DNA from: Solirubrobacteraceae bacterium | Lineage (GTDB): Bacteria > Actinomycetota > Thermoleophilia > Solirubrobacterales > Solirubrobacteraceae | Direction: 5' to 3' | Length of the DNA stretch: 54,415 bases | Assembly: GCA_017882375.1 (NCBI GenBank) | Contig: JADGPP010000013.1 | Coordinates: forward strand, 1-54,415 | Made by a program: the position numbers and the translations under genes | In this document: positions 4,432 to 27,860 of the stretch, piece after piece | Layout of the letters: each line of letters opens with the position of its first letter | Numbering within the stretch: the stretch's first letter is position 1 | Notes under the pieces: model-generated | Told to the model about the DNA's origin: nothing | Database searches by the model: none | The model's input: the letters and a program-made list of their open reading frames with translations, nothing else

Positions 4432-5615
4432 GAGCCGCCGTGCTCCGGCTCACGCGCGCGTTGACCGTCGGCGGCCCCGGCCCCGCCGTCCAGCTGGGCC
4501 AGCAGCAGCGCTTCGACCCGCTCGACGACCCGCGACCACGCGTAGGTCTGCGCGCGAGCCGCTCCGGCGGCCCCCAAGCGCCGCGCCAGCTCGCCGTCTT
4601 GCAGCAGTCGCGTGATCGCCTCGGCCACCGCGAGCGGATCGAGCGGGTCGACGAGCAGCCCCGTCTCGCCGTCGACGACCGCATCGACCGCGCCGCCGAC
4701 GTTGCCCGCGACGACCGGCTTGCCGTACGCGGCCGCCTCCAGGTAGACGATGCCGAAGCCCTCCCCCGCGAACTCGCCGGCGGGCAGGCGGCTGGGCATC
4801 GCCAGCAGCTGCGCGCGCGCCAGCCACGCATCGCGCTGATCGTCGGGGACGGCGCCGAGGAAGCGGATCGAGTCGGCGACGCCGTAGGAGCGCGCGAGCT
4901 GCTCCAGGCCCGGGCGCAGCGAGCCGTCGCCGATCACGACCCATTGCGCGTCTGGCACCTTCGCGAGCACGAGCGCGAGCGCGCGGACCATCACGTCGTG
5001 GCCCTTGTAGCGCTCCTCGATGCGGGCAATCGTGAGGATCGTCGGACGATCGACCGGCCTGGGCGCCGGATCGCTCGGGATGTCGGTGCCGTTGGCGATC
5101 ACGTGCACGCGCTCCGGCGGCCCTCCGGCGGCGGCGATCAGGCTCGCCGTGTAGGCGCTGACGGCGATCGATGCGTCCGCGTGGCGCGCGGCGAAGGCCG
5201 CCAGGCGCGGCTTGGCGCCGATCTCTTCGGCGTGGAAGTACTGGACCGTGCGCGAGCCGCGCGCTCGGCGGATCGCCGCCGCAGCCGGGCTGGTGACGAT
5301 GTGGGCACTGAGCGTCACATCCGGGCGAAAGCTCAGCGCGTGCTTCAGTGCCGCCGCGTTGAGCAGCGCGTTGCGCCCGCCGCGCAGCCCTCCCCCGCCG
5401 CGCACTCTGTGCACGCGCACGCCGCTGGCGGCGTCGAACTGCGCGGCGCCCGGCGAGTCTGGCGCGATCACCTCGGTCTGCAACCCGCGGATGCCTGCGG
5501 CCAGGCGATGGGCCACCACCTGGATCCCGCCCGGGGCGGGTGGGAAGTCCGGCGTGAGGATGAGCAGCCGCGGCCGCTCGCGCAGCCGTGAGACGCTAGG
5601 CGCCATCGAGTCCAT
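4428..5615 (-). CDS. GT-B glycosyltransferase, family 4 type
   Basis: This 395-residue protein carries family 4 features: the N-terminal P-P-A-P-G-G-I-Q motif, a central donor-binding region starting around TILTIARIEERYKGHD, and the E-x7-E pair in GEGFGIVYLEAAAYGKPVV. It is a likely sugar transferase for the exopolysaccharide. The gene overlaps the end of asnB by 20 bp if the first ATG is used, or by 11 bp from the internal ATG three codons later. It overlaps the next glycosyltransferase gene by 4 bp. The tight packing suggests co-translation of asnB and both transferases. Confidence 0.9.
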   Translation of the reverse strand: MDSMAPSVSRLRERPRLLILTPDFPPAPGGIQVVAHRLAAGIRGLQTEVIAPDSPGAAQFDAASGVRVHRVRGGGGLRGGRNALLNAAALKHALSFRPDVTLSAHIVTSPAAAAIRRARGSRTVQYFHAEEIGAKPRLAAFAARHADASIAVSAYTASLIAAAGGPPERVHVIANGTDIPSDPAPRPVDRPTILTIARIEERYKGHDVMVRALALVLAKVPDAQWVVIGDGSLRPGLEQLARSYGVADSIRFLGAVPDDQRDAWLARAQLLAMPSRLPAGEFAGEGFGIVYLEAAAYGKPVVAGNVGGAVDAVVDGETGLLVDPLDPLAVAEAITRLLQDGELARRLGAAGAARAQTYAWSRVVERVEALLLAQLDGGAGAADGQRAREPEHGGS

Positions 5616-12805: not shown

Positions 12806-13626
12806 AGGCTAGGAGGCTCGCGCGGCGTGGCGAGCACGTGGACGTACCACTCCGCCTCCTGCGGCGGGACCTCCGGCGTCTCGATCGTCCGCACCTCATA
12901 GCCTTTGGACTCGAGCAGCTCGGTGACGGCGCGGTTTGTTCCATGCAGCTCGCAGATCAGCGTCGGGCGGTGCTCGCTCAGCAGCTTGGATGCCCCGCGC
13001 AGCGCCGCGACCTCAGCTCCCTCGATGTCCATCTTCACGAGGTCCGGAGCGGCGGCGTACGCCAGCTGGGCGTCGAGCGTCGACAGCTCCACGCGGACGC
13101 GGCCGGCGATGTCGGTGCCGCGCTTGAACGCCGTGTCGACGCTCGTATCGAGCTTTGCCCACGTCGGCGAGGCGTGGATCTCCAGCTCCGCCGTGCCCTC
13201 GGCGTCGCTCAGCGCGACACCGATCAGCTCCACGTTGGCGAGCTCGTTGAGCGCGATGTTGCGGCGGATCGCCTCCTGGTTGGCGGGCAGCGGCTCGAAT
13301 GCCACCACCTTCCCGTCGCCGACGAGGCGAGCGGCGATCAGCGTATAGAAGCCGACGTTCGCGCCGACGTCCCAGACGACCCCGCCGCTGGGAATGTGCT
13401 CGGCGAAGACGTCCTGGATCAGCGGCTCGCTGGTGCCGAGCGCGTAGCCGGCGGCGGCGCCCGCCGGATCGATGCGCATCCCCGCAGCCTGGCCGTGGCC
13501 GACGACGCGCGCGCGATGCAGCAAGCGCGAGCTGGCGGCCTTGACGACCGGTCCGATCACGGGGCGAAACTGCTGCCGGCCCGCCCATCGCAGGGCCGAC
13601 GCCGGCAGACGGTCAACTAGGCCCAT
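12802..13626 (-). CDS. FkbM-family SAM-dependent methyltransferase
   Basis: This 274-residue protein carries motif I VWDVGANVGFYTL at about 104-116, FEPLPAN at about 133-139 and the FkbM motif VKMDIEGAEVAALRGA around 200-215. It most likely O-methylates a sugar of the polysaccharide. It is the last gene of the long minus-strand operon, overlapping the preceding sulfotransferase gene by 14 bp and the convergent glycosyltransferase gene by 4 bp. Confidence 0.87.
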   Translation of the reverse strand: MGLVDRLPASALRWAGRQQFRPVIGPVVKAASSRLLHRARVVGHGQAAGMRIDPAGAAAGYALGTSEPLIQDVFAEHIPSGGVVWDVGANVGFYTLIAARLVGDGKVVAFEPLPANQEAIRRNIALNELANVELIGVALSDAEGTAELEIHASPTWAKLDTSVDTAFKRGTDIAGRVRVELSTLDAQLAYAAAPDLVKMDIEGAEVAALRGASKLLSEHRPTLICELHGTNRAVTELLESKGYEVRTIETPEVPPQEAEWYVHVLATPREPPSL

Positions 13627-14557
13627 GGCTCGGCAAGCTATCAGCGGGCCTGTCGGCGTCCGGCTCGACCGCCGAGCCCCCGCGAGCGCGCGCGCCGACC
13701 GCCGGCTGCAGCCGTGAGAAGACCAGCTTGAACGGGAACTGCAGGACTTTCGTCAGCAACGACGACCTCTGCGGCGAGCCCGGACCCTTCAAGGCGATCG
13801 CGTCAGAGCGCTTGAGGAAGCGGTTTCCCTGCAACGGGCTGCCCGTGCTCAGCGCGGTCAGATCGGGGATCGCCGAGGACGAGCCGGTCCGCTGCAGGAT
13901 CTGCGCGAGCACGCCTTCCGGGTCGGCGAGGAAGTCCTCGTGGCGCACGAACATGCGCCGCTCGGGCGGGTGGCGCAGAAACGCGAGCAGCGAGAGCAGA
14001 TGCGTCACCCACAGCTGAGCGTTGGTCGTGAACGCCGACTTCGAGGGCGAGTCGGTGTGGCGCGCATCGAAGGAGTCGACCACCCCCTGCGGGTCGCGCA
14101 CCAGGAACAGCAGATAGAGATCGATGCCCGTCAGCGCCTGCAGCTCGATCGCCCGCAGCGGATAGTGCGACGTGTCGACGATGTGGCTCGAGCGCGTCTG
14201 GCGTGCGATCGCGCGATAGAGGTCCTCATAGATTCGCCGGTAGGGCGCGCGCAGGTGACGCCGCGCCGGCCACTTGTGGATCCGGTAGATCACCGAGGAG
14301 CGATCGAGATACAGCTGTGTCTCGTGGCCAAACAGCTCATCCGCGCCGGGGACTTCATCGGCGATCGCTTGCCACAGTTGCACGCCCTGCGCTCCGCCGA
14401 AAGACGCTATGCCCCTGCGCGTCAGCCAGGAATGCAGCTCGCCGGCGAAGAACACACCGTCGCAGTTGCCGAGCGTGACGCCGAGGACGGTGCTGCCGCT
14501 GCGGTGCGCGCCCATCACGTAGATGACCTTCGGCTTCTCGTCGCTCGTCTCAGCCAT
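13613..14557 (-). CDS. Sulfotransferase (GxxRSGST class)
   Basis: The product has 314 residues. The 5'-phosphosulfate-binding loop is GAHRSGSTVLG near residues 16-26, followed by the family's LGNCDGVFFAGELHSWL block. The 3'-phosphate-binding strand is LLFLVRDPQGVVDSF near 148-162. These identify a PAPS-dependent sulfotransferase of the broad Sulfotransfer_3/TPST-like group. It has close relatives in the two genes upstream. It is probably cytoplasmic, sulfating sugar hydroxyls of the lipid-linked repeat or polymer; the exact substrate is unknown. It overlaps the preceding gene by 8 bp. Confidence 0.88.
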   Translation of the reverse strand: MAETSDEKPKVIYVMGAHRSGSTVLGVTLGNCDGVFFAGELHSWLTRRGIASFGGAQGVQLWQAIADEVPGADELFGHETQLYLDRSSVIYRIHKWPARRHLRAPYRRIYEDLYRAIARQTRSSHIVDTSHYPLRAIELQALTGIDLYLLFLVRDPQGVVDSFDARHTDSPSKSAFTTNAQLWVTHLLSLLAFLRHPPERRMFVRHEDFLADPEGVLAQILQRTGSSSAIPDLTALSTGSPLQGNRFLKRSDAIALKGPGSPQRSSLLTKVLQFPFKLVFSRLQPAVGARARGGSAVEPDADRPADSLPSHGPS

Positions 14558-15524
14558 CCGGCTCCTGCAGCGCCCGAGCCGTGGCCACCGGGCGCAGCCG
14601 CGCGAGCACGGGAACCCAGCACGACTGCAGCAAGGTCGTCAGGCGCGACCAGCGCACGGTCGGATGGGTCGACCGCTTCACCGCGATCGCCCGCGACATG
14701 ATCAGCGAGTTGCCCTGCAGTGGGACGCCACCGCGCAGCGACGTCAGGTCGGGCATCGCCACGCCGGTGGCGAAGCGGTCGAGGATCTGCTGCATCACGC
14801 CCTCCGGATCGGCCAGAAAGGACTCGTGGCGAACGAACATGCGCCGCCGTCGTGGATGGCGCAGGAACACGAATATCGACAGCAGCTGCGTCAGCCAGAG
14901 GTTCGCGTTCATCGTGAGAATGCGAATTCTTCGCTCTGCCACTTCGTGGCGGCTGATCTCGCGGACGTTTGACGCGACGACGTCCTGCGGGTCGCGGACG
15001 AGCAGCACGAGATACAGCTCGATACCGCTCAGCTTCTGCAGCTCGCGGGCGCGCAGCGGGAAATGCGACGTGTCGACGATGTGGCTGGCACCGGCGGTGC
15101 GCGCGATCGCCTGGAAGAGGTCCTGTGCAACCTGGCGATAGCGGCGCAGCATCCGCCGACGAGCCGGCCACCGGTCGACGCGCAGCAGGGCCGACGAGCG
15201 CTCGACCAGACGGTTGGCCTCGCCGCCGAAGAGCTCCTCGGCGCCCGCTCCATCCATCGCTTCGCGCACACCCCTCCAGAACTCGGTCCGCTCCGAGCCG
15301 CCCCGGCTGGACGCCCCGGAGCTTGCCAGCCACTCGTCGACCTCGCCAGCGTAGAAGGAGTCCGAGCAGTTCCCCAGCGCGACGCCGAGGATCGTGCTGC
15401 CGCTGTGGCCTGCGCCCATCACGTAGATCACCTTGGGCGCTTGGCGCGGCGACTCGGACGGAGGACCCTCGCTTGACTGGAGCAGCGCCGCGGCAGAGGG
15501 GCTTGACCTAGGCGGCGCGGGCAT
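14550..15524 (-). CDS. Sulfotransferase (GxxHSGST class)
   Basis: From the ATG at 15524 the protein has 324 residues; a TTG nine codons earlier is less likely because a TACACT -10-like hexamer lies between. The PAPS loop is GAGHSGSTILG near residues 37-47, with His where the two paralogs have Arg. It is followed by LGNCSDSFYAGEVDEWL. The 3'-phosphate motif is VLLVRDPQDVVASN. It is the middle member of a three-gene set with the genes at 13613 and 15621. It is separated from the upstream member by about 96 bp, the largest gap in this operon. Confidence 0.87.
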   Translation of the reverse strand: MPAPPRSSPSAAALLQSSEGPPSESPRQAPKVIYVMGAGHSGSTILGVALGNCSDSFYAGEVDEWLASSGASSRGGSERTEFWRGVREAMDGAGAEELFGGEANRLVERSSALLRVDRWPARRRMLRRYRQVAQDLFQAIARTAGASHIVDTSHFPLRARELQKLSGIELYLVLLVRDPQDVVASNVREISRHEVAERRIRILTMNANLWLTQLLSIFVFLRHPRRRRMFVRHESFLADPEGVMQQILDRFATGVAMPDLTSLRGGVPLQGNSLIMSRAIAVKRSTHPTVRWSRLTTLLQSCWVPVLARLRPVATARALQEPDG

Positions 15525-15535
15525 GGAGAAGCGGC

Positions 15536-15541
15536 AGTGTA
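15536..15541 (-). promoter_or_regulatory. Possible internal -10 element in the long operon
   Basis: TACACT on the minus strand lies 11 bases before the ATG at 15524, in the only sizeable gap among the downstream genes of the operon. It could give a second transcript with a leader of only a few bases covering two sulfotransferases and the FkbM gene. Confidence 0.25.
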
Positions 15542-15620
15542 GCGGTCCCAAGATCCCCGGCGACGCTCTGGAAAGGGCCGATCGGGCAGCTTCGCCGCCG
15601 CAATCGGGCGCCCGCTGCGC

Positions 15621-16523
15621 CTACTCGTCGGCGGCGGGTGCAAGCCGCGAAAAGACCGCCCGCCATGGCGCCTGCAGCACCGCCGTGACACGCGATCGCG
15701 CAACCGGCGCGGCTGGCCGCGCATCGAGGGCTACGACCTGTGAGCCGACCAGCCGGTTGCCGTGAAACGGCAGACCGGTGCGAAGCGACCGCAGGTCGGG
15801 CACCGCCGAGGACGAGCCGACGCCGTCGAGAATCCTCCTGAGCACGCGTGCTGGATCGGCGACGAAGTCCTCGTGGCGAACGAACAGGCGCCGGTCGCGC
15901 GGATGGCGCAGGAAGACCCACACCGACAGCAGATGCGTCAGCCACAGATACGCATTGCCCGTCGGCACGTCGAAGCTGCGCTCGGCGACGTCTGTGCGGC
16001 CCAGCGATGCGACCACGCTCTGTGGATCGCGCACCAGCAGCAGCAGGTGCAGATCGATGCCGTCGAGCGCCTGCAGCTCCCGCGCGCGCAGCGGATAGTG
16101 GGAGGTGTCGACGACGTGCGTCGCCCCGGATACCGCCGCGAGCGCGAGGTAGAGCTGTTGTGAGACGCGGCGATAGCGCGCGCGCAGTCGACGTCGCGTG
16201 GGCCACTTGCGCGGATCCAGCAGGGCCGAGGAGCGCTCCAGCCAGCCGGTCCTGGCGGCGAACAGACCTTGCTCGTCGCCGACGTCGCGCGAGACGGCCT
16301 CCCAGAACGACGCAAGCTCCGCACCGCTGCGACGGGGAACCCCCGACCGCGCGAACCACTTGTCCAGCTCGCCGGCGAAGAGCACGCCGTCGCAGTTGCC
16401 GAGCGCGACGCCGAGGATCGTGCTGCCGCTGCGCCCGGCCCCCATCACGTATACGACCTTTGGCCGCGCGAGATTTGCATCGGCGCCGGCGGCTGGCTGT
16501 GGCGTCCGAGCGCCGCGGATCAT
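15621..16523 (-). CDS. Sulfotransferase (GxxRSGST class)
   Basis: The 300-residue product starts at an ATG overlapping the stop of the preceding glycosyltransferase gene (ATGA). The longer open frame upstream is antisense-like sequence within that gene and was rejected. The PAPS loop is GAGRSGSTILG near residues 28-38, then LGNCDGVLFAGELDKWF. The 3'-phosphate motif is LLLLVRDPQSVVASL. Strong similarity to the genes at 14550 and 13613 points to duplication within the locus. The likely role is PAPS-dependent O-sulfation of the polysaccharide. Confidence 0.88.
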   Translation of the reverse strand: MIRGARTPQPAAGADANLARPKVVYVMGAGRSGSTILGVALGNCDGVLFAGELDKWFARSGVPRRSGAELASFWEAVSRDVGDEQGLFAARTGWLERSSALLDPRKWPTRRRLRARYRRVSQQLYLALAAVSGATHVVDTSHYPLRARELQALDGIDLHLLLLVRDPQSVVASLGRTDVAERSFDVPTGNAYLWLTHLLSVWVFLRHPRDRRLFVRHEDFVADPARVLRRILDGVGSSSAVPDLRSLRTGLPFHGNRLVGSQVVALDARPAAPVARSRVTAVLQAPWRAVFSRLAPAADE

Positions 16524-17683
16524 CGGCGAGACCCCCCGACGACGTCGCCGAGCAGCTCGGCGATCACGTGCGCGGCGTGCGCGGCGCTCATGCTCTGCGT
16601 GGCGAACGTCCGCCCGCGCGAGGCGAGCGCCGCACGGGCGCTCTCGTCGCCGAGCAGCCCGGCGAGCGCATCGGCGAGCGCGGATGGGGTCGGCGCGACG
16701 ACGTCGGCCGCCCCTGCATCGGCAAGCTCGCTCCATCGACGGGGGCCGTCGATCGCCACCAGCGGCCTGCCCGATGCGAGCGACGCGGCGAGCGTCGTCT
16801 TGCGCGAGTTCGGCCCCAGCGGGTCGACGAACAGCAGCACGTCGCAGGCGCCAAGCGCATCGGCGAGCTCCTGCGCGGCGAGCGTGCCCGAGAACGACGG
16901 CGCGTGCGTCAGCGTTGCACCGCTTGCCGCGGCGAGCCATGCGTCGGCCGTCGCAGACGGTCGCCCCGGCGCGCCGAGCAGCGCCAGTCGCGCGCGCACG
17001 CCGCGGTCCTCGAGCAGGCGCAGGGCGTCAACGACCAGCGACACCGTCGCCTGCCCGTAGGCATAGCCGAACAGGCCGATCGTGGCGATGTCGTCATCTG
17101 CTCGCCGAATCGGCCCAGGCGCCGGCAGGTTGGAGAACACCGGAGCAACCGCGACGCGACGCTTTGCCAGCCAGCGACGTGATGCAAGCCACTCGGCTTG
17201 AAAGTCGGTCGTCGTCAGCACCGCGTCGGAGGTGCGCATCACGTCGATCAGCAGCGCGCGCTGACTCGCCGCCCACGCCGCGCCGCGCAGACCGTCGCGC
17301 CGCCACGGATACACGAACTCGTGCAGGATCGTCACCAGCGGCAGCTGCGCGCTGCGCACCGCCGCGAGCGTCGGATGGACGAACAGCGGCAGCCCGCGGA
17401 AGGAGAAAGAGAAGACCGAGTAGTGCAGCAGCGCCACATCGGACCGCGCGCTTGCGAGCTCGGCGGGGAGCCCTCCCGTCCACGAGTGGATCTCCGCGCG
17501 CGCGGCGCGCAGCGATCCGCCGCGGCGATCGAGCCAGTGCATCGAGCACTCCCAGCTCTCGCGCTCGAGCGCCTGGGCCAGCAGCGCCGCGTGATCGCGC
17601 ACGCCGCAGATCGCCGTCGTCGAGATGCCCAGCGCGGCCGTCCGTACCGAGCGCTGAGACCGCCCGTCGCCCGCCGCCGTCAT
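16520..17683 (-). CDS. Glycosyltransferase, GT-B fold
   Basis: The 387-residue product is bounded by ATGA overlaps on both sides, which fixes the start at 17683. The donor domain is recognisable from TIGLFGYAYGQATVSLVVDAL (near 215-235) and LGACDVLLFVDPLGPNSRKTTLAASLASGRPLVA, but the E-x7-E motif is replaced by a different sequence. This makes it a divergent relative of family 4 enzymes. The N-terminal half has the ISTTAICGVRDHAALLAQAL acceptor-side pattern. Substrate unknown. It sits between a glycosyltransferase and a sulfotransferase in the long operon. Confidence 0.78.
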   Translation of the reverse strand: MTAAGDGRSQRSVRTAALGISTTAICGVRDHAALLAQALERESWECSMHWLDRRGGSLRAARAEIHSWTGGLPAELASARSDVALLHYSVFSFSFRGLPLFVHPTLAAVRSAQLPLVTILHEFVYPWRRDGLRGAAWAASQRALLIDVMRTSDAVLTTTDFQAEWLASRRWLAKRRVAVAPVFSNLPAPGPIRRADDDIATIGLFGYAYGQATVSLVVDALRLLEDRGVRARLALLGAPGRPSATADAWLAAASGATLTHAPSFSGTLAAQELADALGACDVLLFVDPLGPNSRKTTLAASLASGRPLVAIDGPRRWSELADAGAADVVAPTPSALADALAGLLGDESARAALASRGRTFATQSMSAAHAAHVIAELLGDVVGGSRR

Positions 17684-18882
17684 CCGTCGCCAGATGGCTC
17701 GACGCCCGCTCGGCTCGCCGCGAAGGCCTCGCCGCGATAGGCAGCCTCGATCGCCTCGGTGAGGACGTCGAGATCGCCCGTCGGGAGCACCAAACCCCTG
17801 CGCGGGGTGTCGATCAGGTCCTTCATGCCGGTGTCCTCGCTGACGAGCACCGGCACGCCACAGGCGAGCGCCTCGGCGGGGGCGTAGGCGAAGCCGTCCT
17901 CGTAAGCCGGATGCACGCAGAGGCTCGCGGCACGCAGGTGTGGCAGCGGGTCGCCGGGGCTGACGACGATCCGCCGATCGCCCGCGCATGCGCTCTGCAC
18001 GAAGCGCCGCATGCCCCGCGTCCCCCAGCCGCCGACGAGCGTGAGCCGGACATCCGCTTGAGGCAGGCGACGCACGGCGTCGATCAGCAGCGGCACGCCC
18101 TTGTGCACGGCGAGGCTGCCGACGTAGACGATGTCGAAGCGATCGGAGCCCGTACGCGGGCCTTCTTCGCGGTAGCGAGGGTCGGGCGTCAGCGGAAGCG
18201 CAGACAGCAGCTCCGGTGAAAAGCCCTCCTGCAGAAACGATTCGCGCACGTAGCGCGACGCTACGTAGATGCGATCTGCGCGCCCGTACTCGGCGAGGTT
18301 GCGCTTGACCAGGTGCGCGGTCCACGACCCCTCCAGCGGATAGCGCCTATGCGCCTTGGCATGCTGGGCTGCGACTTGGCGCATGTGCGAGTTCGCCGAG
18401 ACGAGCGCGAGCGAGCGGTAGCCCGCGCGGCGCGCAACTGCGAACTGCGTCAGCGCCTGCCCGTTGAACGCGACGAGATGCTCGGCGGCCGGCAGGCGCC
18501 GCGCGGCGTACGCGTCGAAGTCGGTCATGAACGCGCGCGTGCGCACGCCAGGCGTCAGCGGCAGCGGCGAGCGGGCGAGCATCCTGCTCGCGCCGAACGC
18601 CGCGAGCCTCGCGCGCAGGACTCGGCGTGAATCGGGGGGTGGTGCAGCGCGCGTCGAGCCGCTGATGCAGACGGTCGGCTGCTCGGCGCGCTGCAGCGCA
18701 GCGACGATCTCGCGCAGGTGCCGCCCCAGACCTCCGGTGCCGAGCGCCGCCGAGCACGACACGACCACACGCCCGGACGGCAGCGCAGCCTCCTGTGCGG
18801 CCAGCGTCGCTTCGCGCCAGCTCGCGCCGAGCGGCCCGTCGCCTTGGTCGGCCTCGACGCTCGGCTCAGTCGAGGCGGTCAT
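17680..18882 (-). CDS. GT-B glycosyltransferase, family 4 type
   Basis: The protein of 400 residues has the family 4 acceptor-side motif LGTGGLGRHLREIV, the donor-domain strand IVYVGSLAVHKGVPLLIDAV, and the signature EDGFAYAPAEALACGVPVLV. Its first six codons lie in a 17-bp overlap with the C-terminal codons of the sulfotransferase gene upstream. The N-terminal Met-Thr-Ala-Ser-Thr-Glu-Pro-Ser closely matches the start of the sulfotransferase at 21795, including two residues beyond the overlap. The conserved part of the transferase begins only near residue 37, so the first 30 or so residues may be a relic or linker. Confidence 0.88.
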   Translation of the reverse strand: MTASTEPSVEADQGDGPLGASWREATLAAQEAALPSGRVVVSCSAALGTGGLGRHLREIVAALQRAEQPTVCISGSTRAAPPPDSRRVLRARLAAFGASRMLARSPLPLTPGVRTRAFMTDFDAYAARRLPAAEHLVAFNGQALTQFAVARRAGYRSLALVSANSHMRQVAAQHAKAHRRYPLEGSWTAHLVKRNLAEYGRADRIYVASRYVRESFLQEGFSPELLSALPLTPDPRYREEGPRTGSDRFDIVYVGSLAVHKGVPLLIDAVRRLPQADVRLTLVGGWGTRGMRRFVQSACAGDRRIVVSPGDPLPHLRAASLCVHPAYEDGFAYAPAEALACGVPVLVSEDTGMKDLIDTPRRGLVLPTGDLDVLTEAIEAAYRGEAFAASRAGVEPSGDG

Positions 18883-19861
18883 AGCCCCAGAGCGCGACGA
18901 GGTCGCGATCCAGATACTCGCTCAGCGCCACGACCTCTCCCTTGAAGCGTCGGCGCAGCTCCAGCATCAGCTCCTCGTCGGGAGGGCGGGGCGTGCCGTT
19001 TACGAGATGACGCTGGGTCAGGGCGATCGCGCGGCCTCGCAGCTCGCTGGGCATGACGACCTTCAGCCCGGCCTTCACCGCCCGCGACACCGGCCCCCTG
19101 CCAACCGAGACGACGTTCAGCAATTCGTCGATCTGCTGCGAGCGCATGCGCGCATTCGTCGGGTTCGCGTCCTTCACTTCGACCGGAGAGTCCTCCTCGA
19201 CGCCGAGGAATCGCCGCACCGTTCGCACGGTTCCCTCGTTGTCGCGACGGAAGTCGTCGTAGATCAAGACGAGCACCTGCTCTGGCGGAAACGCCTCGTG
19301 ATAGCGGCGCAGCTGCTCGACGTAGCGCACGTGGTCTGAGTACAACAGCAGTTGCGGGCGGTGTGAGCGCCGGGGTACCTTCTTGCCTTCGCGCCGAGCG
19401 CCCTCCAGAGAGATCGCCCGTCGCAGGTCCTGCTGGTTCTCGACGTGAGTCCTCAGCAGTTGCAGGTGAAGTGAACGCAGAAAGCTCGCGGGCTCGCGCA
19501 GGATCGCGATGATGCGCGCATCAGGGCGCACCTCGGCGATTCGCGCGGCGGCGGTGCGTGACAGCAGGTATGACGACGATGCCTCGCCGATCCGCTGCTC
19601 GGGACGGGCATCGGCGAACAGTGACCGGTACTCGTCGAGCGTCTTCAGCGGCGCGGCCGAGCGCGGCGGTTGAAAACGCGCGACCATGTCACTGGCGAAG
19701 TACCACGGCTCCTTGAGCTCGGGCATGTAGATCTGCGGGTGATGCCTGAGCATCTCGTACAGCGCCGTGGTGCCGCTCTTGGGCTGGCCGACGATGAAGA
19801 AATCCGGCACCCCCGCCTGCGGCACGCGCGCAGTCGTCGGTGCCTCAGCCGATGCTGTCAT
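18866..19861 (-). CDS. Sulfotransferase, tandem array copy 4
   Basis: From the ATG at 19861 the protein has 331 residues; the earlier start thirteen codons upstream would lie deep in the previous gene and breaks the array pattern. The PAPS loop is PKSGTT at 27-32. The 3'-phosphate motif is REPASFLRSLHLQ, and the C-terminus ends Trp-Gly-Tyr-Asp-Arg-Leu-Asp. This is the Sulfotransfer_1 / heparan-sulfate-sulfotransferase-like group, distinct from the RSGST class at 13.6-16.5 kb. Both ends overlap neighbours by 17 bp. It probably transfers sulfate from PAPS to sugar hydroxyls or amines of the polysaccharide. Confidence 0.9.
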   Translation of the reverse strand: MTASAEAPTTARVPQAGVPDFFIVGQPKSGTTALYEMLRHHPQIYMPELKEPWYFASDMVARFQPPRSAAPLKTLDEYRSLFADARPEQRIGEASSSYLLSRTAAARIAEVRPDARIIAILREPASFLRSLHLQLLRTHVENQQDLRRAISLEGARREGKKVPRRSHRPQLLLYSDHVRYVEQLRRYHEAFPPEQVLVLIYDDFRRDNEGTVRTVRRFLGVEEDSPVEVKDANPTNARMRSQQIDELLNVVSVGRGPVSRAVKAGLKVVMPSELRGRAIALTQRHLVNGTPRPPDEELMLELRRRFKGEVVALSEYLDRDLVALWGYDRLD

Positions 19862-20819
19862 AACCCCAGAGTCTAACGAGGTCACGGTCCAGGTATTCAC
19901 TCAGCTCGACGATCTCTCCCTCGAAGCGACGGCGCAATTGCAGCATCAGCTGCTCGTCTGCGGGACGTGGTTTGCCGTAGAGCACGCGGCGGCGCAGCGT
20001 CCTCAGCGCATCGCGGCGCAGGCGCCGTGGAGTGAGCGCCTTGACGCCCGCCTTGAGCGTCCGCGCGACCGGTCCCCGGCCCATGTACAGCGAGCGCACG
20101 AGCTCGTACATGCGCAGCGAACGAACGCGCACCGTCGGGTTCGCATCGGTCGCCTCGATCGCAGCGGCGGCGTCGACTCCCAGGAATTGCAGGACCGAGC
20201 GCACGGTCGACTCGTTGTCACTGCGAAAGTCGTCATAGATCAGCACGAGCACCTGCTCAGGCGGAAACACGGCGTGGTAACGGCGAAGCTGCTCGACGTA
20301 GTGCACGTACTCCGAATACACCAGCCCCGGAGACCGACGGCGCGCCTCCTCTCCACTTCTCAGCGGCTCGAGCGCCATCGCCTTGGCGAGATCGGGCTCC
20401 GTCTCGACGTGATCGCGCAGCAGCTCCATGTGCAGCGAGCGCAGGAAGTCCGCCGGCTCGCGCAGAATTGCGATGATCCGCGCGTCGGGCTGCAGCTCGG
20501 CGATCCGCGCGGCCGCGCTGTGCGAACGCAGGTACGACGGCGAGGCCTCGCCGAGGCGCTGCTGGGGCTCGGCGCCGGCGAACAGCGCGAGATAGTCCTC
20601 GATCGTCTCCGGGTGTAGCCGGGATTTGTGTGACCCGGGATGCAGCTCGGGGGCGAAGAATCGAGTCTCCTTGACGTCAGGCATGTAGATCTGCGGGTGG
20701 CGCCGCAACATCTCATACAACGCGGTGGTGCCGCACTTGGGGTGACCGACGATGAAGAAGTCGGGCACCCGTCCCTGACTCGCGCGAGCGACGGCCGGAG
20801 CCTCAGCCGAGGCTGTCAT
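19845..20819 (-). CDS. Sulfotransferase, tandem array copy 3 (PKCGTT loop)
   Basis: This 324-residue paralog has the PAPS loop PKCGTT at 27-32, with Cys where the other copies have Ser. The 3'-phosphate motif is REPADFLRSLHME, and it ends with a Trp-Gly-Tyr-Asp-Ser-Ile-Gly tail. The start at 20819 is chosen because it repeats the 17-bp junction seen at each boundary; an upstream in-frame start thirteen codons earlier is less likely. Divergence from its neighbours is moderate across the whole length, so the copies have probably drifted toward different substrates or positions. Confidence 0.9.
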   Translation of the reverse strand: MTASAEAPAVARASQGRVPDFFIVGHPKCGTTALYEMLRRHPQIYMPDVKETRFFAPELHPGSHKSRLHPETIEDYLALFAGAEPQQRLGEASPSYLRSHSAAARIAELQPDARIIAILREPADFLRSLHMELLRDHVETEPDLAKAMALEPLRSGEEARRRSPGLVYSEYVHYVEQLRRYHAVFPPEQVLVLIYDDFRSDNESTVRSVLQFLGVDAAAAIEATDANPTVRVRSLRMYELVRSLYMGRGPVARTLKAGVKALTPRRLRRDALRTLRRRVLYGKPRPADEQLMLQLRRRFEGEIVELSEYLDRDLVRLWGYDSIG

Positions 20820-21795
20820 AGCCCCACAGCCCGACCAGGTCGCGATCGAGATAGTCACTCAGCGCGACGACCTCGTCCTTGAAGCGATGACGCAACTCGA
20901 GCATCAGCTGCTCGTCGGCAGGCTGGGGCGCACCCAGCTGCGCACGATGCTCGATCGCGATGACCTCGTGGCGCAGCCGCTGCGGGGTGAGCGCTTTGAT
21001 CACCTTCTTTGCACGACGCGATCCCGGGCCCCGGCCGAGGTAGAGCGAGCGCACGAGACCGTAGAGCCGCGGAGAGCGAACTTGGACGGTCGGATTCGCG
21101 TCCGTCTGCTCGATCGCGGACGTGTCGTCGACGTCGAGAAAGCGCAGCACCCGGCGCACGATGGAATCGTTGTCGGCGCGGAAGTCGTCATAGATCAGCA
21201 CGAGTATCTGCTCAGGTGAGAAGACGTCGTGATAGCGGCGCAGCTGCTCGACGTAGCGAACGTGATCGGAATACAGCAGAGCCTGCGGTCGAGTGCAGTT
21301 GGGCGGGAGGTCCTTGCCTTCACGCCGGCGACCCTCCAGGGAAATCGCCTTGCCGAGGTCGCTCTCGGTCTCGACATTGGTTTGCAGGAATTGCAGGTGA
21401 AGCGAGCGCAAGAAGCTCGCCGGCTCACGCAGGATCGCGATTATCCGCGCCGCGGGCTGCACTTCGGCGATGCGCCTGGCGGCGTCGTGTGAGAACAGGT
21501 AGGAAGGGGTTGCCTCGCCGGCGCGCTGCTCCGGTTTGGCGTCCTGAAAGAGTGACAGATACCCCTCGAGCGTGTGCGGGTGCCTGTCAGCGTTTCCCCT
21601 ACGGGCGGGAGAGCGCAGCTCGGGAACGAAGAACCACGACTCCTTGACGTCGGGCATGTAAATCTGTGAATGCTGCTTGAGCATCTCATACAGGGCCGTC
21701 GTGCCGCTCTTGGCGTGCCCGACGATGAAGAAGTCGGGCAGGCGCGCATGCGCGGTGGTATTGACCGCGGCAGACGGTTCAAGCGATGCTGTCAT
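20803..21795 (-). CDS. Sulfotransferase, tandem array copy 2 (AKSGTT loop)
   Basis: This 330-residue paralog has PAPS loop AKSGTT at 28-33, with Ala replacing the usual Pro. The 3'-phosphate motif is REPASFLRSLHLQ, and the tail is Trp-Gly-Tyr-Asp-Ser-Leu-Gly. The start ATG overlaps the preceding gene's last codons by 17 bp. It is the same group as the other three array members, and the Lys-Ser-Gly-Thr-Thr core that contacts the phosphosulfate is intact. Confidence 0.9.
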   Translation of the reverse strand: MTASLEPSAAVNTTAHARLPDFFIVGHAKSGTTALYEMLKQHSQIYMPDVKESWFFVPELRSPARRGNADRHPHTLEGYLSLFQDAKPEQRAGEATPSYLFSHDAARRIAEVQPAARIIAILREPASFLRSLHLQFLQTNVETESDLGKAISLEGRRREGKDLPPNCTRPQALLYSDHVRYVEQLRRYHDVFSPEQILVLIYDDFRADNDSIVRRVLRFLDVDDTSAIEQTDANPTVQVRSPRLYGLVRSLYLGRGPGSRRAKKVIKALTPQRLRHEVIAIEHRAQLGAPQPADEQLMLELRHRFKDEVVALSDYLDRDLVGLWGYDSLG

Positions 21796-22774
21796 AGCCC
21801 CAGAGTCTAACGAGGTCGCGTCCCAGGAAATCGCTCAGCGCGACCACCTCCGGCTTGAATCGACGGCGCAGTTCGAGCATCACGAGCTCGTTTGCCGGCG
21901 GCGGCTCGGTGTAGAGCAGGCGGTTGCGAATCGTGCCGACGGCGCCGCGGCGCAGGCGCTGGGGCAGGAGTGTCTTGATCGCTGCCTTGACCGTCAACGA
22001 CAGCGGGCCCCGCCCGACGGACACGGCGTGCAGCAGCTCGTGCGTGCGCTGCGAGCGCGCGCGCACGGTCGGGTTGGCGTGCAACGGCTCGATCGGCGCC
22101 CCGGCATCGACCTCGAGGAAGCGCAGAACCTGGCGAACCGTGGCCTCGTTGTCCTCGCGGAAGTCGTCGTAGGTGAGAACCAGGATCTGCTCGGGTGAAA
22201 AGACGGCGTGATATCGACGCAGCTGCTCGACGTAGCGCACGTGCTCTGAATACAGCAGCGTCTGCGGCCAGTAGGTGTAACGGGGTATCTCTCGACCTTC
22301 GCGTCTGGCCGGCTCCAGCGCGATCGCCTTCGCGAAATCGTTCTCCGTCTCGATGTACGTCTGCACGAACTGGAGGTGAAGCGAGCGCAGGAAGCTCGCG
22401 GGCTCGCGCAGGATCGCGATTATGCGCGCATCGGGTCGCACCTCGGCGATCCGCTTCGCCGCCGTGTGCGACCACAGGTACAAGGGAGACGCCTCGCCCA
22501 CACGCTGCTCGGCACCGGCGCCGTCGAACCACGCCATGTACTGCTGCAGCGTCTTCGGCGTCCCTTCCGGCCGCGGCGGGGTCCGCTCGTGCAGCTCGTC
22601 GGCGAGGAACCACGGCTCCTTGCCGTCGGGCATGAAGATCTGCGGGTGGCGTCGCAGCATCGAGTAGAGGGCTGTCGTGCCGCTCTTGGCGTGCCCGACG
22701 ATGAAGAAATCGGGGATCCGACCCTTCGCCGCGGCGCTCGCAGGCCCCACCGCCTCGTCGGGCCTCGGTCTCAT
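21779..22774 (-). CDS. Sulfotransferase, tandem array copy 1 (AKSGTT loop)
   Basis: The first gene of the tandem array encodes 331 residues. PAPS loop AKSGTT lies at 29-34, the 3'-phosphate motif is REPASFLRSLHLQ, and the tail is Trp-Gly-Tyr-Asp-Ser-Ile-Ala. Unlike the downstream copies its N-terminus does not begin Met-Thr-Ala-Ser, which fits the idea that those residues are imposed by the overlap with the upstream copy. A gap of 39 bp separates it from the ABC transporter gene. Confidence 0.9.
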   Translation of the reverse strand: MRPRPDEAVGPASAAAKGRIPDFFIVGHAKSGTTALYSMLRRHPQIFMPDGKEPWFLADELHERTPPRPEGTPKTLQQYMAWFDGAGAEQRVGEASPLYLWSHTAAKRIAEVRPDARIIAILREPASFLRSLHLQFVQTYIETENDFAKAIALEPARREGREIPRYTYWPQTLLYSEHVRYVEQLRRYHAVFSPEQILVLTYDDFREDNEATVRQVLRFLEVDAGAPIEPLHANPTVRARSQRTHELLHAVSVGRGPLSLTVKAAIKTLLPQRLRRGAVGTIRNRLLYTEPPPANELVMLELRRRFKPEVVALSDFLGRDLVRLWGYDSIA

Positions 22775-22813: not shown

Positions 22814-24604
22814 CTAGCGCTCGGTCGTCGATCCGGCGGCGAGCTGCGAGGCGTGGCGGTAATAGGTGTTCTGCGTCTGCAGCAGGGCTTTCGTGTCGAA
22901 GGCGACCAGCCTGCCGTCGACGATCACCATCACGCGATCGCAGATGTCCAGAGTCGACATGCGGTGGGCGATGATGAACAGCGTCAACTCACTCTTCAGC
23001 GCAGTCAGCGACTCACCGATCAGGGTCTCCGATTGGGGATCGAGCGCGCTCGTCGGCTCGTCGAGCACGAGCACCTCGGGCCGCGCCACGAGCGCTCGAG
23101 CGAGGCAGATCCGCTGTTGCTGACCACCGGAGACCGCATCGGCGCGCGGTCCGACGATCGTCTCATACCCATCAGCCCAGGCGATGACGTCGTCGTGGAT
23201 GCGCGCGAGCTTGGCGGCGCGCTGCACCGCATCGTCGTCGACGTCGCGGAAGAAGCGGATGTTGTCGGCCACGGACGCGTGCAGCAGGCGCGGTTCCTGT
23301 GGCACGTAGGCGACCTGCCGGTACCAGTCGACGCGGGCGAACTGATCGGCGGGGACGCGGTTGACCAGGTAGCGGCCCCGATCGGGCTTTCGCAGCTGAA
23401 GCAGCAGCTGCACGATCGTCGACTTGCCGGCGCCCGACGGGCCGATTATCCCAATCACCTCTCCGCCGGAGACCTCGAAGCTGAGGTCCGTGAGCACGGG
23501 CCGATCGGCGCTGTAGGCGAAGGAGACCCGCTCGAACTTCAAGTCGTCCACGCGGGGCAACGGCTGCTCGCCATACACCGGCGCGCTGGCCTCGTAGCGC
23601 TCGACGGCCTCCTGCGTGCGTTCGATGAACGGAAGCGCCTGCGCCAGGCCCTGATAGGCGCCCTGGACGAGTTGCCCGGCCGTCCCGGCTCGGAGCAGCA
23701 CGAGCACCACGGCGGCGAGCGATCCGACGTGCGAGCGCCCCGCAGCCACGAGCCCGGCGATCCCGCCGACGACGAGCAGGTAGATCACGCTCTGGTAGAA
23801 GTTGAGCACGAGCCTGTTCAGCAGCTGCGTGCGGTAGTAGTACTCGCGAGCGTTGCCGGCGAGCGTGGCAATTCGACCGCGCTGGGCGCCGGTCACACCG
23901 AAGACCTGACTCTCTTCGGCGACACGGATCGACTCGGCGATGCCGCCCGCGTATTCGACCTGCGCCTTGGAGAGCCCGCGCGAGCTGCGGACGCCGCGCG
24001 CGCGCAGGGGCCGGAGCAGTCCGAACAGCGCCACGGTCGCCGCGAGCACCGCGACGGCCGCAACGGGATTCAGCGCCACGGCCGAGGCGAGCAGCACGAG
24101 GAAGGTGAACGAGGAGGTGATCAGGCTCGTCGCCTGCAGCGCGCCGCCGGTCGCCGACATCACCTGGCTGGTCGCCGTCTCCTGAAGCTGTCCCTCGCGA
24201 TCCTGGGACTGCACCGACCACGAGGCGCGCGTGAACGCGTCGAACAGGTTCGTGCGCATGGTCGCCTGGACGTCGGAGGCGATCCGCGCGGGCAGAATCG
24301 AGATCGGGAACTGCAGCAGGATGCGCAGCAGGACCAGGCCGAACGCGACGAGGATCAGCGTTGTCATCGTTGCGTTGATCTGGATCGGCCCATGGTCGAA
24401 ATGGACCACTTTGTGGCCGCTGACGAGAGTCGCCGCGACCTGCGCGATCAGCGCCAGAGTGCCCGCTTCGGTGAAGCCGGAGAAGATCGAGCAGATCGCG
24501 AGCACGACTACCGACCTGCGCCGCTTGCCCAGCAGCAGGTTGACGCGGTAGCGCGTCGAGCCCCGCTGCGGGCCGGCGTCCTTGCGTCGCTTGCCCACGC
24601 GCAT
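22814..24604 (-). CDS. ABC transporter, exporter/flippase type (fused membrane and ATPase domains)
   Basis: From the ATG overlapping the upstream stop by one base (TGATG) the protein has 596 residues. The open frame further upstream is antisense-like and was rejected. Residues about 28-340 form an exporter-type membrane domain with about six hydrophobic segments. The ATPase domain has Walker A GPSGAGKST at 388-396, signature VSGGQQQ at 491-497, Walker B VLVLDEP at 511-517 and the H-loop His in IIAHR. This is the half-transporter architecture of MsbA/PglK, which flip lipid-linked molecules. Placed between a Wzy-like gene and sulfotransferases, it is the best candidate here for the flippase, since no Wzx-type protein is seen. 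Confidence 0.9.
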   Translation of the reverse strand: MRVGKRRKDAGPQRGSTRYRVNLLLGKRRRSVVVLAICSIFSGFTEAGTLALIAQVAATLVSGHKVVHFDHGPIQINATMTTLILVAFGLVLLRILLQFPISILPARIASDVQATMRTNLFDAFTRASWSVQSQDREGQLQETATSQVMSATGGALQATSLITSSFTFLVLLASAVALNPVAAVAVLAATVALFGLLRPLRARGVRSSRGLSKAQVEYAGGIAESIRVAEESQVFGVTGAQRGRIATLAGNAREYYYRTQLLNRLVLNFYQSVIYLLVVGGIAGLVAAGRSHVGSLAAVVLVLLRAGTAGQLVQGAYQGLAQALPFIERTQEAVERYEASAPVYGEQPLPRVDDLKFERVSFAYSADRPVLTDLSFEVSGGEVIGIIGPSGAGKSTIVQLLLQLRKPDRGRYLVNRVPADQFARVDWYRQVAYVPQEPRLLHASVADNIRFFRDVDDDAVQRAAKLARIHDDVIAWADGYETIVGPRADAVSGGQQQRICLARALVARPEVLVLDEPTSALDPQSETLIGESLTALKSELTLFIIAHRMSTLDICDRVMVIVDGRLVAFDTKALLQTQNTYYRHASQLAAGSTTER

Positions 24605-26211
24605 CACGCAGCCACCGGAGAGGCCGAGCCGACGTGACGATCGGGACGGACGATCTTCGCCTCTCGCGTCTGGCGTCCCGGCCCGGCGAACCAGTACGCG
24701 GCCATGCCGACCGCCAGCCAGAAGTAGGGGCCCGACGCCGTGCTCGTGATGAACGGCCCCGAGAACCCCTCGAGCGTCAGCGCGATGAAGGGAGCGAATG
24801 CTCCCGCGAGCATGATCGCGAGCTCGCCGTCGCCGACTCTTCGGATCCCGCGAGCGACCAGCACGATCACGAAGATCGTCAGGGCGATCCACGCGAGCAG
24901 GCCAGGGGCGCCGAGTTCGTCGGCGACGAGGTTGTACTGCGTCTCGGCGCTCACCCCGTGGCCTTCCACCAGTTCTGTGACCTTGCCGCCGAAGCCGCCA
25001 GCGGCCCCGACCGTTCCGAGCCCGACGCCCAGCGGCGCCGACGCGAGGAACTGTGGGATTTTGCTCCAGGCCGATGACTTGTGGCTGGGCACCGTCGACA
25101 CCGCTTCGCTGGGCGCGATGCTTTCGTAACGCTTGAACGTCCCGCCGCCCACCGCGGACACGAACACGGCGCCGAGCGGCACGGCGAGCGCGACGATCAC
25201 GAGCATCGCCCCGAGCGCACGCGTGACTCTGCGCCCGGCCAGCGACGCGAGCGCGACGAACGCGAAAACCCCCAGCACGGCTCCGACGACCTGCAATCTC
25301 CCTAGGCCGGTCGCGACGGCGACCAGCGCACCCAGACCCAGCAGCGCGGCGACCCATCTTCGGCGCGACCGCCAGGTCGCCAGCAGCGCCAGGCAGCAGG
25401 GCAGCGCGATCACTCCTACGCCGCCGCTGAAGCCGCTGTCAGAGCCGAGTCCCAGCGGCCGTACCCGCGCCTGGCCTTCGCTGCTGTAGGTGCGGGCGAT
25501 GGAGCCCTTTTTGCCGACCGTCGTGGGCTGCACCAAGGCCCGGTAGCCCGGCCCCCAGCTGGCCAGCTGGGCGGGGCTGAGACCCGTCTGATAAGTGGCC
25601 ACCGCACCGTTGGCCAGCCCGATCACGCCGATGATGATGAACAGCTGGCGCAGGCGCTTCTTGGAGCGCACAAGCACGTACCCGAAGAAGAAGAAGGGAA
25701 CCCATTGCAGCTCCTGCCTGAAACCGCCGAGGACGTGCAGCACTCCGTGGGTCTTCGGGTTGAAGGCGTTGACGACGACGATCGCGACGAACGCGAGGAC
25801 CCAGCCCGAGAGAGGAGGCAGCTTGACGCGCTCCCTGCGCGCGAGCAGACGCATCACCGCGCCCAGGCAGACCGCGAGGATCAGGACGTTGCGGATCGCG
25901 GCGGTCGCTTCGCTGCGTCCGATGCCAAGCTTCACCGGGCCGTCGAGCAATCCCAGGTAGACGGCTAGCAGCCCGACGGTGACCTCGAGACGGCTGTTGA
26001 CGATCAGCGCGACGATCGCGAGCACAGCGAGGATCGCCCCGAGCACGACCAGCACGCTCGTGTTGGGCAGCGCAACGGTGAGGCCGAGAGCGATGACCGC
26101 GGGAACCAGCCCCGAGAGCCCAACCAGCGCGATGTCGCGGATGCGCCTGTCCAAGACCACCGGATGCACCGCGCCGGCTCCCCCCGACAGGCGCAGGCGG
26201 GGGGTGGTCAT
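24604..26211 (-). CDS. O-antigen polymerase/ligase-like membrane protein (Wzy/WaaL type)
   Basis: The 535-residue protein is very hydrophobic, with about eleven or twelve predicted membrane segments spread from residue 27 to the C-terminus. Between about 215 and 410 there is a large, more polar portion. The pattern of many helices with one long periplasm-facing loop is that of the Wzy_C/O-antigen ligase superfamily, which joins lipid-linked sugar units or transfers them to a carrier. It overlaps the Wzc-like gene by 4 bp and the ABC transporter gene by one base, so all three are probably made together. Confidence 0.82.
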   Translation of the reverse strand: MTTPRLRLSGGAGAVHPVVLDRRIRDIALVGLSGLVPAVIALGLTVALPNTSVLVVLGAILAVLAIVALIVNSRLEVTVGLLAVYLGLLDGPVKLGIGRSEATAAIRNVLILAVCLGAVMRLLARRERVKLPPLSGWVLAFVAIVVVNAFNPKTHGVLHVLGGFRQELQWVPFFFFGYVLVRSKKRLRQLFIIIGVIGLANGAVATYQTGLSPAQLASWGPGYRALVQPTTVGKKGSIARTYSSEGQARVRPLGLGSDSGFSGGVGVIALPCCLALLATWRSRRRWVAALLGLGALVAVATGLGRLQVVGAVLGVFAFVALASLAGRRVTRALGAMLVIVALAVPLGAVFVSAVGGGTFKRYESIAPSEAVSTVPSHKSSAWSKIPQFLASAPLGVGLGTVGAAGGFGGKVTELVEGHGVSAETQYNLVADELGAPGLLAWIALTIFVIVLVARGIRRVGDGELAIMLAGAFAPFIALTLEGFSGPFITSTASGPYFWLAVGMAAYWFAGPGRQTREAKIVRPDRHVGSASPVAA

Positions 26212-27860
26212 CTACCCATCAGCTTGCCCGACCACACCCGCCCGTTGGCCGCCGCGAAGCCGTATCGCTTGATTTCTCTGCGCGGCAGGCAGTTGGCAAC
26301 GATGCCGAGCGCAGGAGCATTGGATTGGGCGAGCAGCTGGACGAGCCGCTGCGCGGACATTTCTCGCGTGTGACCGGCGCGCGCGACGATCACGATCGCA
26401 TCGACGAGCTTGAGCAGTGGCATCACGTCGCTGACTTCCAGCGGCGAGGGAGCGTCGATCAGCACGTAGTCGAAGTCCTCTGAGACCGAGCGCAGCAGAT
26501 CGGCCATCGCCGCATGCCCGAGCAGCGCCGGGGGGTTGGGAACCGATCGGCCGCCCGCGAGCAGGAACAGCGTGCCGGCCTCACGCGACTCGACCATGGT
26601 CGCAACCGGCGCTCCCGCGCCGGGATCGTCGGAGAGCTCGGCCGGCTGGATCGGATGCACGCGCTGCATGGCCTGACCGACAGCGAGCTTTCCCGTGAGC
26701 ACCTCCGCGAGGCCCTCAGCGCCATCGAGGCCCAGCAGCCTCGCCTGGGCCGGGCGGCGGAAGTTGGCCTCCACGACGGCCACGCGCTCACCGGAGTCAC
26801 GCTGGACCAACGCCAGATCGGCGACCAGCGTCGACTTGCCGTCGCCCGCGTCCGCGCTGACGAACAGGACCGTCCGCGATGGCCTGGTGCGCCGGGGATC
26901 GGGGTTCACACCGAGTTGCAGCGCTGTGTGCAATCGCCGCAGTGGCTCGACAAGAAACTGCGACGGCGTCGGCTCTCCGTCGCGTCGCACGATCGGGCGT
27001 CTGACCTTGGGAAAGCTGGCGAGGATCTGCGATCCGAACGCTCCCTCGATGCCGGCCAGCGAACGCAGCCGACGGTCGAATCGACCGAGCGCGTATGCCG
27101 CGATCGCCGCCAGGACGATCCCGATGACGAAGCCGAAGATCGCGTTTTTGCGCGGCTTGGGCGAGAGCAGCAGAGCCGTGGTCGCCTTGGCGGGCTTGAT
27201 CTGCTCGGCGCCAGCGACACCAAGGCTCGCTTCGAGCTGGTTGATCTTGCTGTTCAACGCCGCCGCCTGCAGCACGCTGGAGGTGCTGGGCGTCCTGGTG
27301 ACAGCGGGCGCGTTCTTGGATTTGCCTGCCGTCTTCGGCACAGCCTTGGGCACGCTCGCCGCTTCGATCCTGCGCAGCTGGCGGCGGGCGATCGCGATCG
27401 CCCGTTCTGTGGCGCGCTGTCGGCTGGCGTGCTGGCGCCGGATGAAGGTACGCGCGGTGGTGTTCGCCAGCAGCGCCGCGCCTTTGGCCGTGTGCGCTTC
27501 GGCGGTTATCGCTATGAACTCGCTCTTTTCGGGCGACTTCGCACGGACCTTGCTGCCACGTATCAGCGCCTTGTCTTTCTGGCGCAACTGCTGTCGCACC
27601 TGTTCAATGACGATCGAATTGATGATCGCCACCTGATTGGCGACGTTTGCCGTCTGCCCTTTGCTGCTCGTCTTTTCACCCGGAGCCTGTTCTTCGAGGC
27701 TGGCGCCGAGATAGATCTGCGTCGTCGACTGATAAACACGCGTGGCGTGCTTGTAGTAGAAGTAGCTCGCAGCCGCGACTACTACCCCCACCGTGAGGAT
27801 CAACCACTTGCGCCTCCAGAGCGGAAGAAGGATGGAGGTGGCGTCGGTCGTCTCGTTCAT
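26208..27860 (-). CDS. Wzc-like chain-length determinant fused to a BY-kinase-type ATPase
   Basis: This 550-residue protein has a Wzz domain with a first membrane helix at about 17-33 (LILTVGVVVAAASYFYY) and a second around 236-255. A cytoplasmic P-loop ATPase follows: Walker A DAGDGKST at about 337-344 and Walker B YVLIDAP at about 461-467. Such proteins set polysaccharide chain length. Two departures are notable. The Walker A' strand reads VVEANFRR, so both usual acidic residues of the D-x-D motif are replaced by Glu and Asn. The C-terminus lacks the tyrosine cluster, with one Tyr in the last 25 residues. It is the first gene of the long operon. Confidence 0.88.
   Translation of the reverse strand: MNETTDATSILLPLWRRKWLILTVGVVVAAASYFYYKHATRVYQSTTQIYLGASLEEQAPGEKTSSKGQTANVANQVAIINSIVIEQVRQQLRQKDKALIRGSKVRAKSPEKSEFIAITAEAHTAKGAALLANTTARTFIRRQHASRQRATERAIAIARRQLRRIEAASVPKAVPKTAGKSKNAPAVTRTPSTSSVLQAAALNSKINQLEASLGVAGAEQIKPAKATTALLLSPKPRKNAIFGFVIGIVLAAIAAYALGRFDRRLRSLAGIEGAFGSQILASFPKVRRPIVRRDGEPTPSQFLVEPLRRLHTALQLGVNPDPRRTRPSRTVLFVSADAGDGKSTLVADLALVQRDSGERVAVVEANFRRPAQARLLGLDGAEGLAEVLTGKLAVGQAMQRVHPIQPAELSDDPGAGAPVATMVESREAGTLFLLAGGRSVPNPPALLGHAAMADLLRSVSEDFDYVLIDAPSPLEVSDVMPLLKLVDAIVIVARAGHTREMSAQRLVQLLAQSNAPALGIVANCLPRREIKRYGFAAANGRVWSGKLMGR

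What the first reader, a model, noticed from the sequence alone, without database searches (positions are those of the whole stretch)
18866..22774. Every junction of the sulfotransferase array is the same 17-bp out-of-frame overlap
In all four junctions the downstream ATG is formed from the Tyr-Asp codons (tATGac) of the conserved Gly-Tyr-Asp C-terminus, and the upstream TGA lies 14 bases later. The N-terminal Met-Thr-Ala-Ser of each downstream product is thus the frame-shifted reading of the upstream protein's C-terminal motif. The first copy, with no upstream copy, lacks Met-Thr-Ala-Ser. The duplication unit carries its own coupled start site, an elegant way to expand an operon without intergenic DNA.
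Basis: seen in the sequence. Interest (0 to 1): 0.8.

Follow-up and report, generated by a model that had tools for sequence, protein, structure and literature searches.

The report
Sulfotransferase tail doubles as start site
In a cluster of sulfotransferase genes in an uncultured soil bacterium, the conserved last amino acids of each enzyme are encoded by DNA that also contains, in another reading frame, the start codon of the next gene, and the same arrangement recurs in relatives carrying two to five copies, so a fixed protein tail has become a reusable start site.

Summary
ST1-ST4 (minus strand, 22774 to 18866) join by identical 17-nt out-of-frame overlaps, ATG from tATGac of Gly-Tyr-Asp and TGA 14 nt later. 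One correction: only three junctions are ST/ST; the fourth is ST4 to a glycosyltransferase (GT1), which also starts Met-Thr-Ala-Ser. Among 65 homologous genes in one Solirubrobacteraceae genus, 24 of 25 adjacent ST/ST pairs overlap in this phase (21 at 17 nt, one at 14, two at 11), in arrays of 2-5 copies, and 13 further junctions lead into glycosyltransferases or another sulfotransferase. Ordinary junctions of the same operons mostly offer 4-nt overlaps. The Tyr codon is TAT in 34/39 tails followed by an adjacent gene against 7/19 elsewhere (background 23%). So the tail looks like a pre-existing, ordered protein feature recruited as a start site and kept for a long time, not the trace of a recent duplication. 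Translation by termination-reinitiation is inferred. New variant of a known kind (translationally coupled overlapping genes).

The parts
21779..22774 (-). ST1, first sulfotransferase of the array, no coupled start (MRPRPDEAVG...)
   Evidence: PF13469/PF00685; 39-nt gap to the upstream ABC gene
20803..21795 (-). ST2, sulfotransferase, starts MTASLEPS
19845..20819 (-). ST3, sulfotransferase, starts MTASAEAP
18866..19861 (-). ST4, sulfotransferase, starts MTASAEAP
   Evidence: AlphaFold model pLDDT 92.5, tail 321-330 about 97
17680..18882 (-). GT1, GT4-type glycosyltransferase, starts MTASTEPS from the ST4 tail
21779..21795 (-). 17-nt overlap ST1/ST2 (ATGACAGCATCGCTTGA)
20803..20819 (-). 17-nt overlap ST2/ST3 (ATGACAGCCTCGGCTGA)
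19845..19861 (-). 17-nt overlap ST3/ST4 (ATGACAGCATCGGCTGA)
18866..18882 (-). 17-nt overlap ST4/GT1 (ATGACCGCCTCGACTGA)
16520..17683 (-). GT2, glycosyltransferase, ordinary 4-nt overlap with GT1 (control junction); its homologue in G092 starts instead in an ST tail with a 17-nt overlap
22814..24643 (-). ABC transporter/flippase-like gene upstream of the array (exact start not established)
24604..26211 (-). O-antigen-ligase/polymerase-like membrane protein (name by context, no Pfam hit)
26208..27860 (-). Wzz-type chain-length/tyrosine-kinase-like protein

Best explanation
The array is part of a polysaccharide-assembly operon (Wzz, ligase/polymerase-like, ABC, ST array, GT1, GT2). The STs carry an almost invariant, structurally ordered C-terminal motif Trp-Gly-Tyr-Asp followed by three residues and a stop. 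When Tyr is encoded by TAT, the +1 frame contains an ATG exactly 14 nt before the stop. Whatever gene lies directly downstream (the next ST or a glycosyltransferase) uses this ATG; its first residues form a poorly ordered, freely varying linker, so only one of the two overlapping frames is tightly constrained. Ribosomes that finish the upstream ST most likely re-initiate at this ATG by backing up 14-17 nt, or the upstream ribosome keeps the site open; no well-placed Shine-Dalgarno sequence is present. Tandem duplication or recombination that keeps ST tails intact automatically yields coupled junctions, so ST number can vary (2-5) without new start sites. Shown: anatomy, recurrence, copy-number range, synteny, codon bias, several downstream families. 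Inferred: actual start use, the coupling mechanism, the way arrays grow, sulfation of an exported polysaccharide.
For: Exact 17-nt junctions. Across the genus 24/25 ST/ST pairs and 13 ST-to-other junctions are in the same phase. Tail ATG is the only ATG before the P-loop in 22/24 ST/ST junctions and the only ATG/GTG/TTG in 8/24. ATG-to-PDFF linker is exactly 18 aa in 10/24. Tail Tyr codon TAT in 34/39 with an adjacent downstream gene vs 7/19 without, Fisher p = 1.6e-4, body background 155/680; where coupled tails have TAC, an ATG 11 nt before the end in the same phase replaces it, 3/3. Other junctions of the same operons mostly offer 4 nt. Downstream families: array ST, GT1, GT2-type GT4, another GT4, a GT2-family enzyme, Sulfotransfer_3. 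Synteny and copy number. GT1 strong matches occur only in this genus, all nine directly after an array ST. Ordered tail, less confident N-terminus.
Against: Published work says coupling falls with overlap length, strongly from -4 to -25 nt, so -17 is not an optimal spacing (PMC12548453; PMC10666635). The tail is inherited, so the 37 junctions are not independent; on the tree only 4 well-supported independent contrasts exist (3 concordant on median, none discordant, p = 0.25). ATG presence is built into the definition of the 17-nt class. GTG alternatives exist in several junctions, e.g. ST3 and ST4 here. One ST/ST pair uses a spacer. The coupled-versus-uncoupled gene calls rest on a simple codon model.
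Confidence: 0.75

Rival explanations
1. Recent tandem duplication with gene conversion: the junctions are identical because the copies are young or are homogenised, and the overlap has no functional meaning.
For: ST1 and ST3 share a tail with a rare codon (gttagactctgggg); G110's two copies share a 42-nt identical run near the tail.
Against: Window copies are only 60-65% identical, and three of the four are 71-74% identical to a gene of another genome. Genome labels change 30 times on the tree for 10 genomes. Codon identity at shared residues is no higher within than between genomes (tail 0.591 vs 0.580).
Confidence: 0.1
2. The tail ATG is a by-product of the Tyr-Asp codons; true initiation is at GTG codons in the linker, with ordinary independent ribosome binding.
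For: GTG codons lie close to PDFF in several junctions; the MTxS linker is not otherwise conserved.
Against: In 8/24 junctions no other ATG/GTG/TTG start precedes the P-loop; TAT is strongly enriched only where a gene follows directly; coupled TAC tails carry another ATG in the same phase. The downstream frame is open through the overlap in every coupled case.
Confidence: 0.12
3. Convergent recruitment: neighbouring genes each independently adopted the tail ATG after deletion of spacer DNA, rather than the junction being inherited. (Not exclusive of the best explanation: it concerns origin, not function.)
For: Several different downstream families use the same site; GT2 has a 4-nt overlap after GT1 here but a 17-nt overlap after an ST in G092; state changes on the tree are at least 9.
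Against: The 18-aa linker recurring in 10 of 24 ST/ST junctions and the shared operon order point to inheritance for most ST/ST and ST/GT1 junctions.
Confidence: 0.3
4. The overlap is a programmed frameshift site making fused multi-sulfotransferase proteins.
For: The downstream frame is open across the overlap.
Against: No slippery heptamer is seen by eye in TGG-GGC-TAT-GAC, and overlap lengths of 17, 14 and 11 are not tied to one site (sequence).
Confidence: 0.03

Closest known systems
Translational coupling by termination-reinitiation at overlapping gene pairs (Huber 2019, PMC6728339; Huber 2023, PMC10666635; review PMC12548453)
   Same: Co-directional overlapping genes, start codon upstream of the stop, expected dependence of the downstream gene on upstream translation.
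   Different: Canonical overlaps are 4, 1 or 8 nt; here it is 17 nt (14 or 11 in some relatives), in the phase of long overlaps, anchored in a conserved protein motif and repeated along an array of paralogues. Coupling is not measured here.
Long phase-1 unidirectional overlaps (Fonseca 2013, PMC3887535)
   Same: Overlap length and phase fall in this class, the common one among long overlaps.
   Different: Those are explained as by-products of start or stop codon loss; here one position recurs in 33 of 37 coupled junctions and across several downstream families.
Heparan-sulfate-type PAPS sulfotransferases (3RNL, NDST, 3-OST; PF13469/PF00685)
   Same: Sequence and fold of the encoded enzymes.
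   Different: Array organisation; most sampled distant homologues end within a few residues of the conserved Trp and lack the Tyr-Asp tail.

Membership tests
Translationally coupled overlapping gene pair (termination-reinitiation) | Same-strand genes with downstream start at or before the upstream stop | tested here: met
   17-nt overlaps
Translationally coupled overlapping gene pair (termination-reinitiation) | Downstream translation depends on upstream termination | not testable with these tools
   needs reporters or ribosome profiling
Translationally coupled overlapping gene pair (termination-reinitiation) | Spacing in the efficient range (about -8 to +6 nt); typical, not strictly required | tested here: not met
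   -17 nt; published coupling falls with overlap
PAPS-dependent sulfotransferase (PF13469/PF00685) | Profile match above the curated cut-off, and PAPS-binding P-loop (KSGTT) | tested here: met
PAPS-dependent sulfotransferase (PF13469/PF00685) | Sulfation of a polysaccharide acceptor | not testable with these tools
   inferred from operon context only
Recent tandem duplication array | Copies within a genome closer to each other than to genes of other genomes | tested here: not met

The most novel reading that the evidence does not exclude
The almost invariant C-terminal WGYD motif of this sulfotransferase clade is a portable start-site module under selection in both frames: it lets ST genes and glycosyltransferases be gained, lost and exchanged between operons at the tail while every gene remains translationally coupled, and the suboptimal 17-nt spacing sets decreasing enzyme amounts along the array.
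Probability: 0.25. Interest if true: 0.7.

Novelty: new variant of a known kind. Interest (0 to 1): 0.5.

Why it matters
Long gene overlaps are usually treated as scattered by-products. Here one position recurs in dozens of junctions because a protein motif supplies the start codon, with uncoupled relatives as natural controls (TAC instead of TAT, closed +1 frame, or a spacer with GGAGG). This makes a testable case of how operons of paralogues grow and shrink while keeping translation coupled, and of whether selection in one frame fixes regulation in the other.

Tried and rejected
One region request failed on length. Gene conversion or tail homogenisation: tested, not found overall. A well-placed Shine-Dalgarno sequence upstream of the tail ATG: not found; the only G-rich stretch is the TGGGG of the Trp-Gly codons, 2 nt from the ATG and too close by the usual rule. 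Polarising the event with GT1 outside the genus: impossible at the threshold used, GT1 matches only in this genus. Deciding from outgroups whether the protein tail or the start came first: distant homologues mostly end soon after the Trp and one ends WGFEEN; the mostly uncoupled clade in the genus keeps WGYD or close variants, which favours tail first but does not prove it. Literature searches for tandem arrays sharing a conserved overlap found nothing of the kind, in the open-access library only.

Full report
Observation. On the minus strand ST1 (22774-21779), ST2 (21795-20803), ST3 (20819-19845) and ST4 (19861-18866) and the glycosyltransferase GT1 (18882-17680) follow each other with four overlaps of exactly 17 nt. 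In each, tATGac comes from the Tyr-Asp codons of the tail WGYDxxx* and the TGA begins 14 nt after the A of ATG. All four downstream proteins start MTAS; ST1 starts MRPRPDEAVG.

Identity. The STs match Sulfotransfer_3 and Sulfotransfer_1, share the P-loop KSGTT/KCGTT, and resemble 3RNL and heparan-sulfate sulfotransferases in sequence and fold. They lie between an ABC gene and GT1 in a Wzz / ligase-like / ABC / ST array / GT1 / GT2 operon, so they probably sulfate an exported polysaccharide (inference).

Relatives. Close homologues were found only in the same genus, in 12 further genomes among 146 of the family, one of which has weak matches only. Named records are Solirubrobacteraceae/Solirubrobacterales metagenome-assembled genomes; homologues outside reach about 40-46% identity at most in that scan. 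I fetched the loci and found 65 ST open frames including the window's. Of 25 adjacent ST/ST pairs, 24 overlap in the same phase: 21 by 17 nt, one by 14 (tail one residue shorter), two by 11. The exception, G106:C66, has a spacer with the next likely start about 90 nt downstream and a GGAGG before it, and its tail ATG frame closes after three codons. Thirteen further junctions run from an ST tail into a non-array gene: GT1 nine times (eight at 17 nt, one at 11; one of the nine is cut by a contig end), and once each a GT2-type GT4, another GT4, a GT2-family glycosyltransferase and a Sulfotransfer_3, all four at 17 nt. Copy numbers in complete arrays are 2, 3, 4 and 5.

Controls. Other junctions of the same operons mostly offer 4-nt overlaps: Wzz to ligase, ligase to GT2, GT1 to GT2 in the window, GT2 to STb, STb to STb, Wzz to ST. 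GT2 overlaps GT1 by 4 nt here, yet its homologue in G092 starts in an ST tail with 17 nt. So the 17-nt length is a property of the upstream ST tail.

Selection on the start. The tail Tyr codon is TAT in 34 of 39 tails followed directly by a gene, 7 of 19 otherwise (Fisher p = 1.6e-4), against 23% TAT in ST bodies. The test is partly circular because a 17-nt start needs TAT, but the uncoupled tails sitting near background, and the ATG at 11 nt in the three coupled TAC tails, are not built in. Only four well-supported independent contrasts exist on the tree, too few for significance. Uncoupled tails also use the rare Ile codon ATA (5 of 11; 38 of 674 in bodies), which closes the +1 frame when followed by G or A; none of 11 in coupled tails do. 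Four of these five are in one clade.

Start choice. In 22 of 24 ST/ST junctions the tail ATG is the only ATG before the P-loop, and in 8 the only ATG/GTG/TTG. No well-placed Shine-Dalgarno sequence was found; the G-rich match is the TGGGG of the Trp-Gly codons, 2 nt from the ATG. Published data say coupling is best at -4 to +3 nt and falls with overlap, to nothing at -25 nt in one study (PMC12548453), and overlaps longer than 8 nt are rare (PMC10666635). Hence reinitiation from 14 nt downstream is plausible but likely weak.

History. On the tree, first copies of most arrays fall in one 13-row group, with mixed support, and the window's ST1-ST4 are each nearest by path to a gene of another genome; within the window they are 60-65% identical. 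Tail DNA is not homogenised. The array is therefore old relative to these species. Uncoupled STs, including a clade mostly placed before a thiolase-like gene, retain WGYD or close variants, so the tail seems to be a protein feature first. The AlphaFold model gives the last complete ten-residue block (321-330) pLDDT about 97 and the first ten residues 63: a constrained tail overlaps a free linker.

Verdict. It is a new variant of translationally coupled overlapping genes. Start use and coupling are unmeasured.

Noticed in passing
L041 (G105:C140), L045 (G106:C23), L142 (G103:C107), L143 (G103:C68, stop at 5269): Uncoupled ST tails with Tyr TAC lie opposite a predicted convergent gene whose stop (TAA/TAG) is the reverse complement of TTA/CTA in the same Gly-Tyr (or Asp-Tyr) codons: a 19-nt convergent overlap at the same tail.
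   Followed up: partly
L044, L050, L133, L145, L147 (ST tails): Five uncoupled tails use the rare Ile codon ATA; in four of them (L044, L133, L145, L147) it closes the +1 frame three codons after the Tyr-derived start position.
   Followed up: partly
window 17680-18882: GT1 strong matches are restricted to this genus and were found only directly downstream of an array sulfotransferase, 9 of 9.
   Followed up: yes
window 12802-16517: Three further Sulfotransfer_3 genes (13613-14557, 14550-15551, 15621-16517) and an FkbM-type methyltransferase (12802-13626) lie downstream in the same operon direction.
   Followed up: no
L147 (G000:C19), L050, L130, L133, L145: Solitary ST homologues sit directly before a gene starting VIVDAxRTPIGRA (thiolase-like by eye) in five genomes, without overlap.
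   Followed up: no
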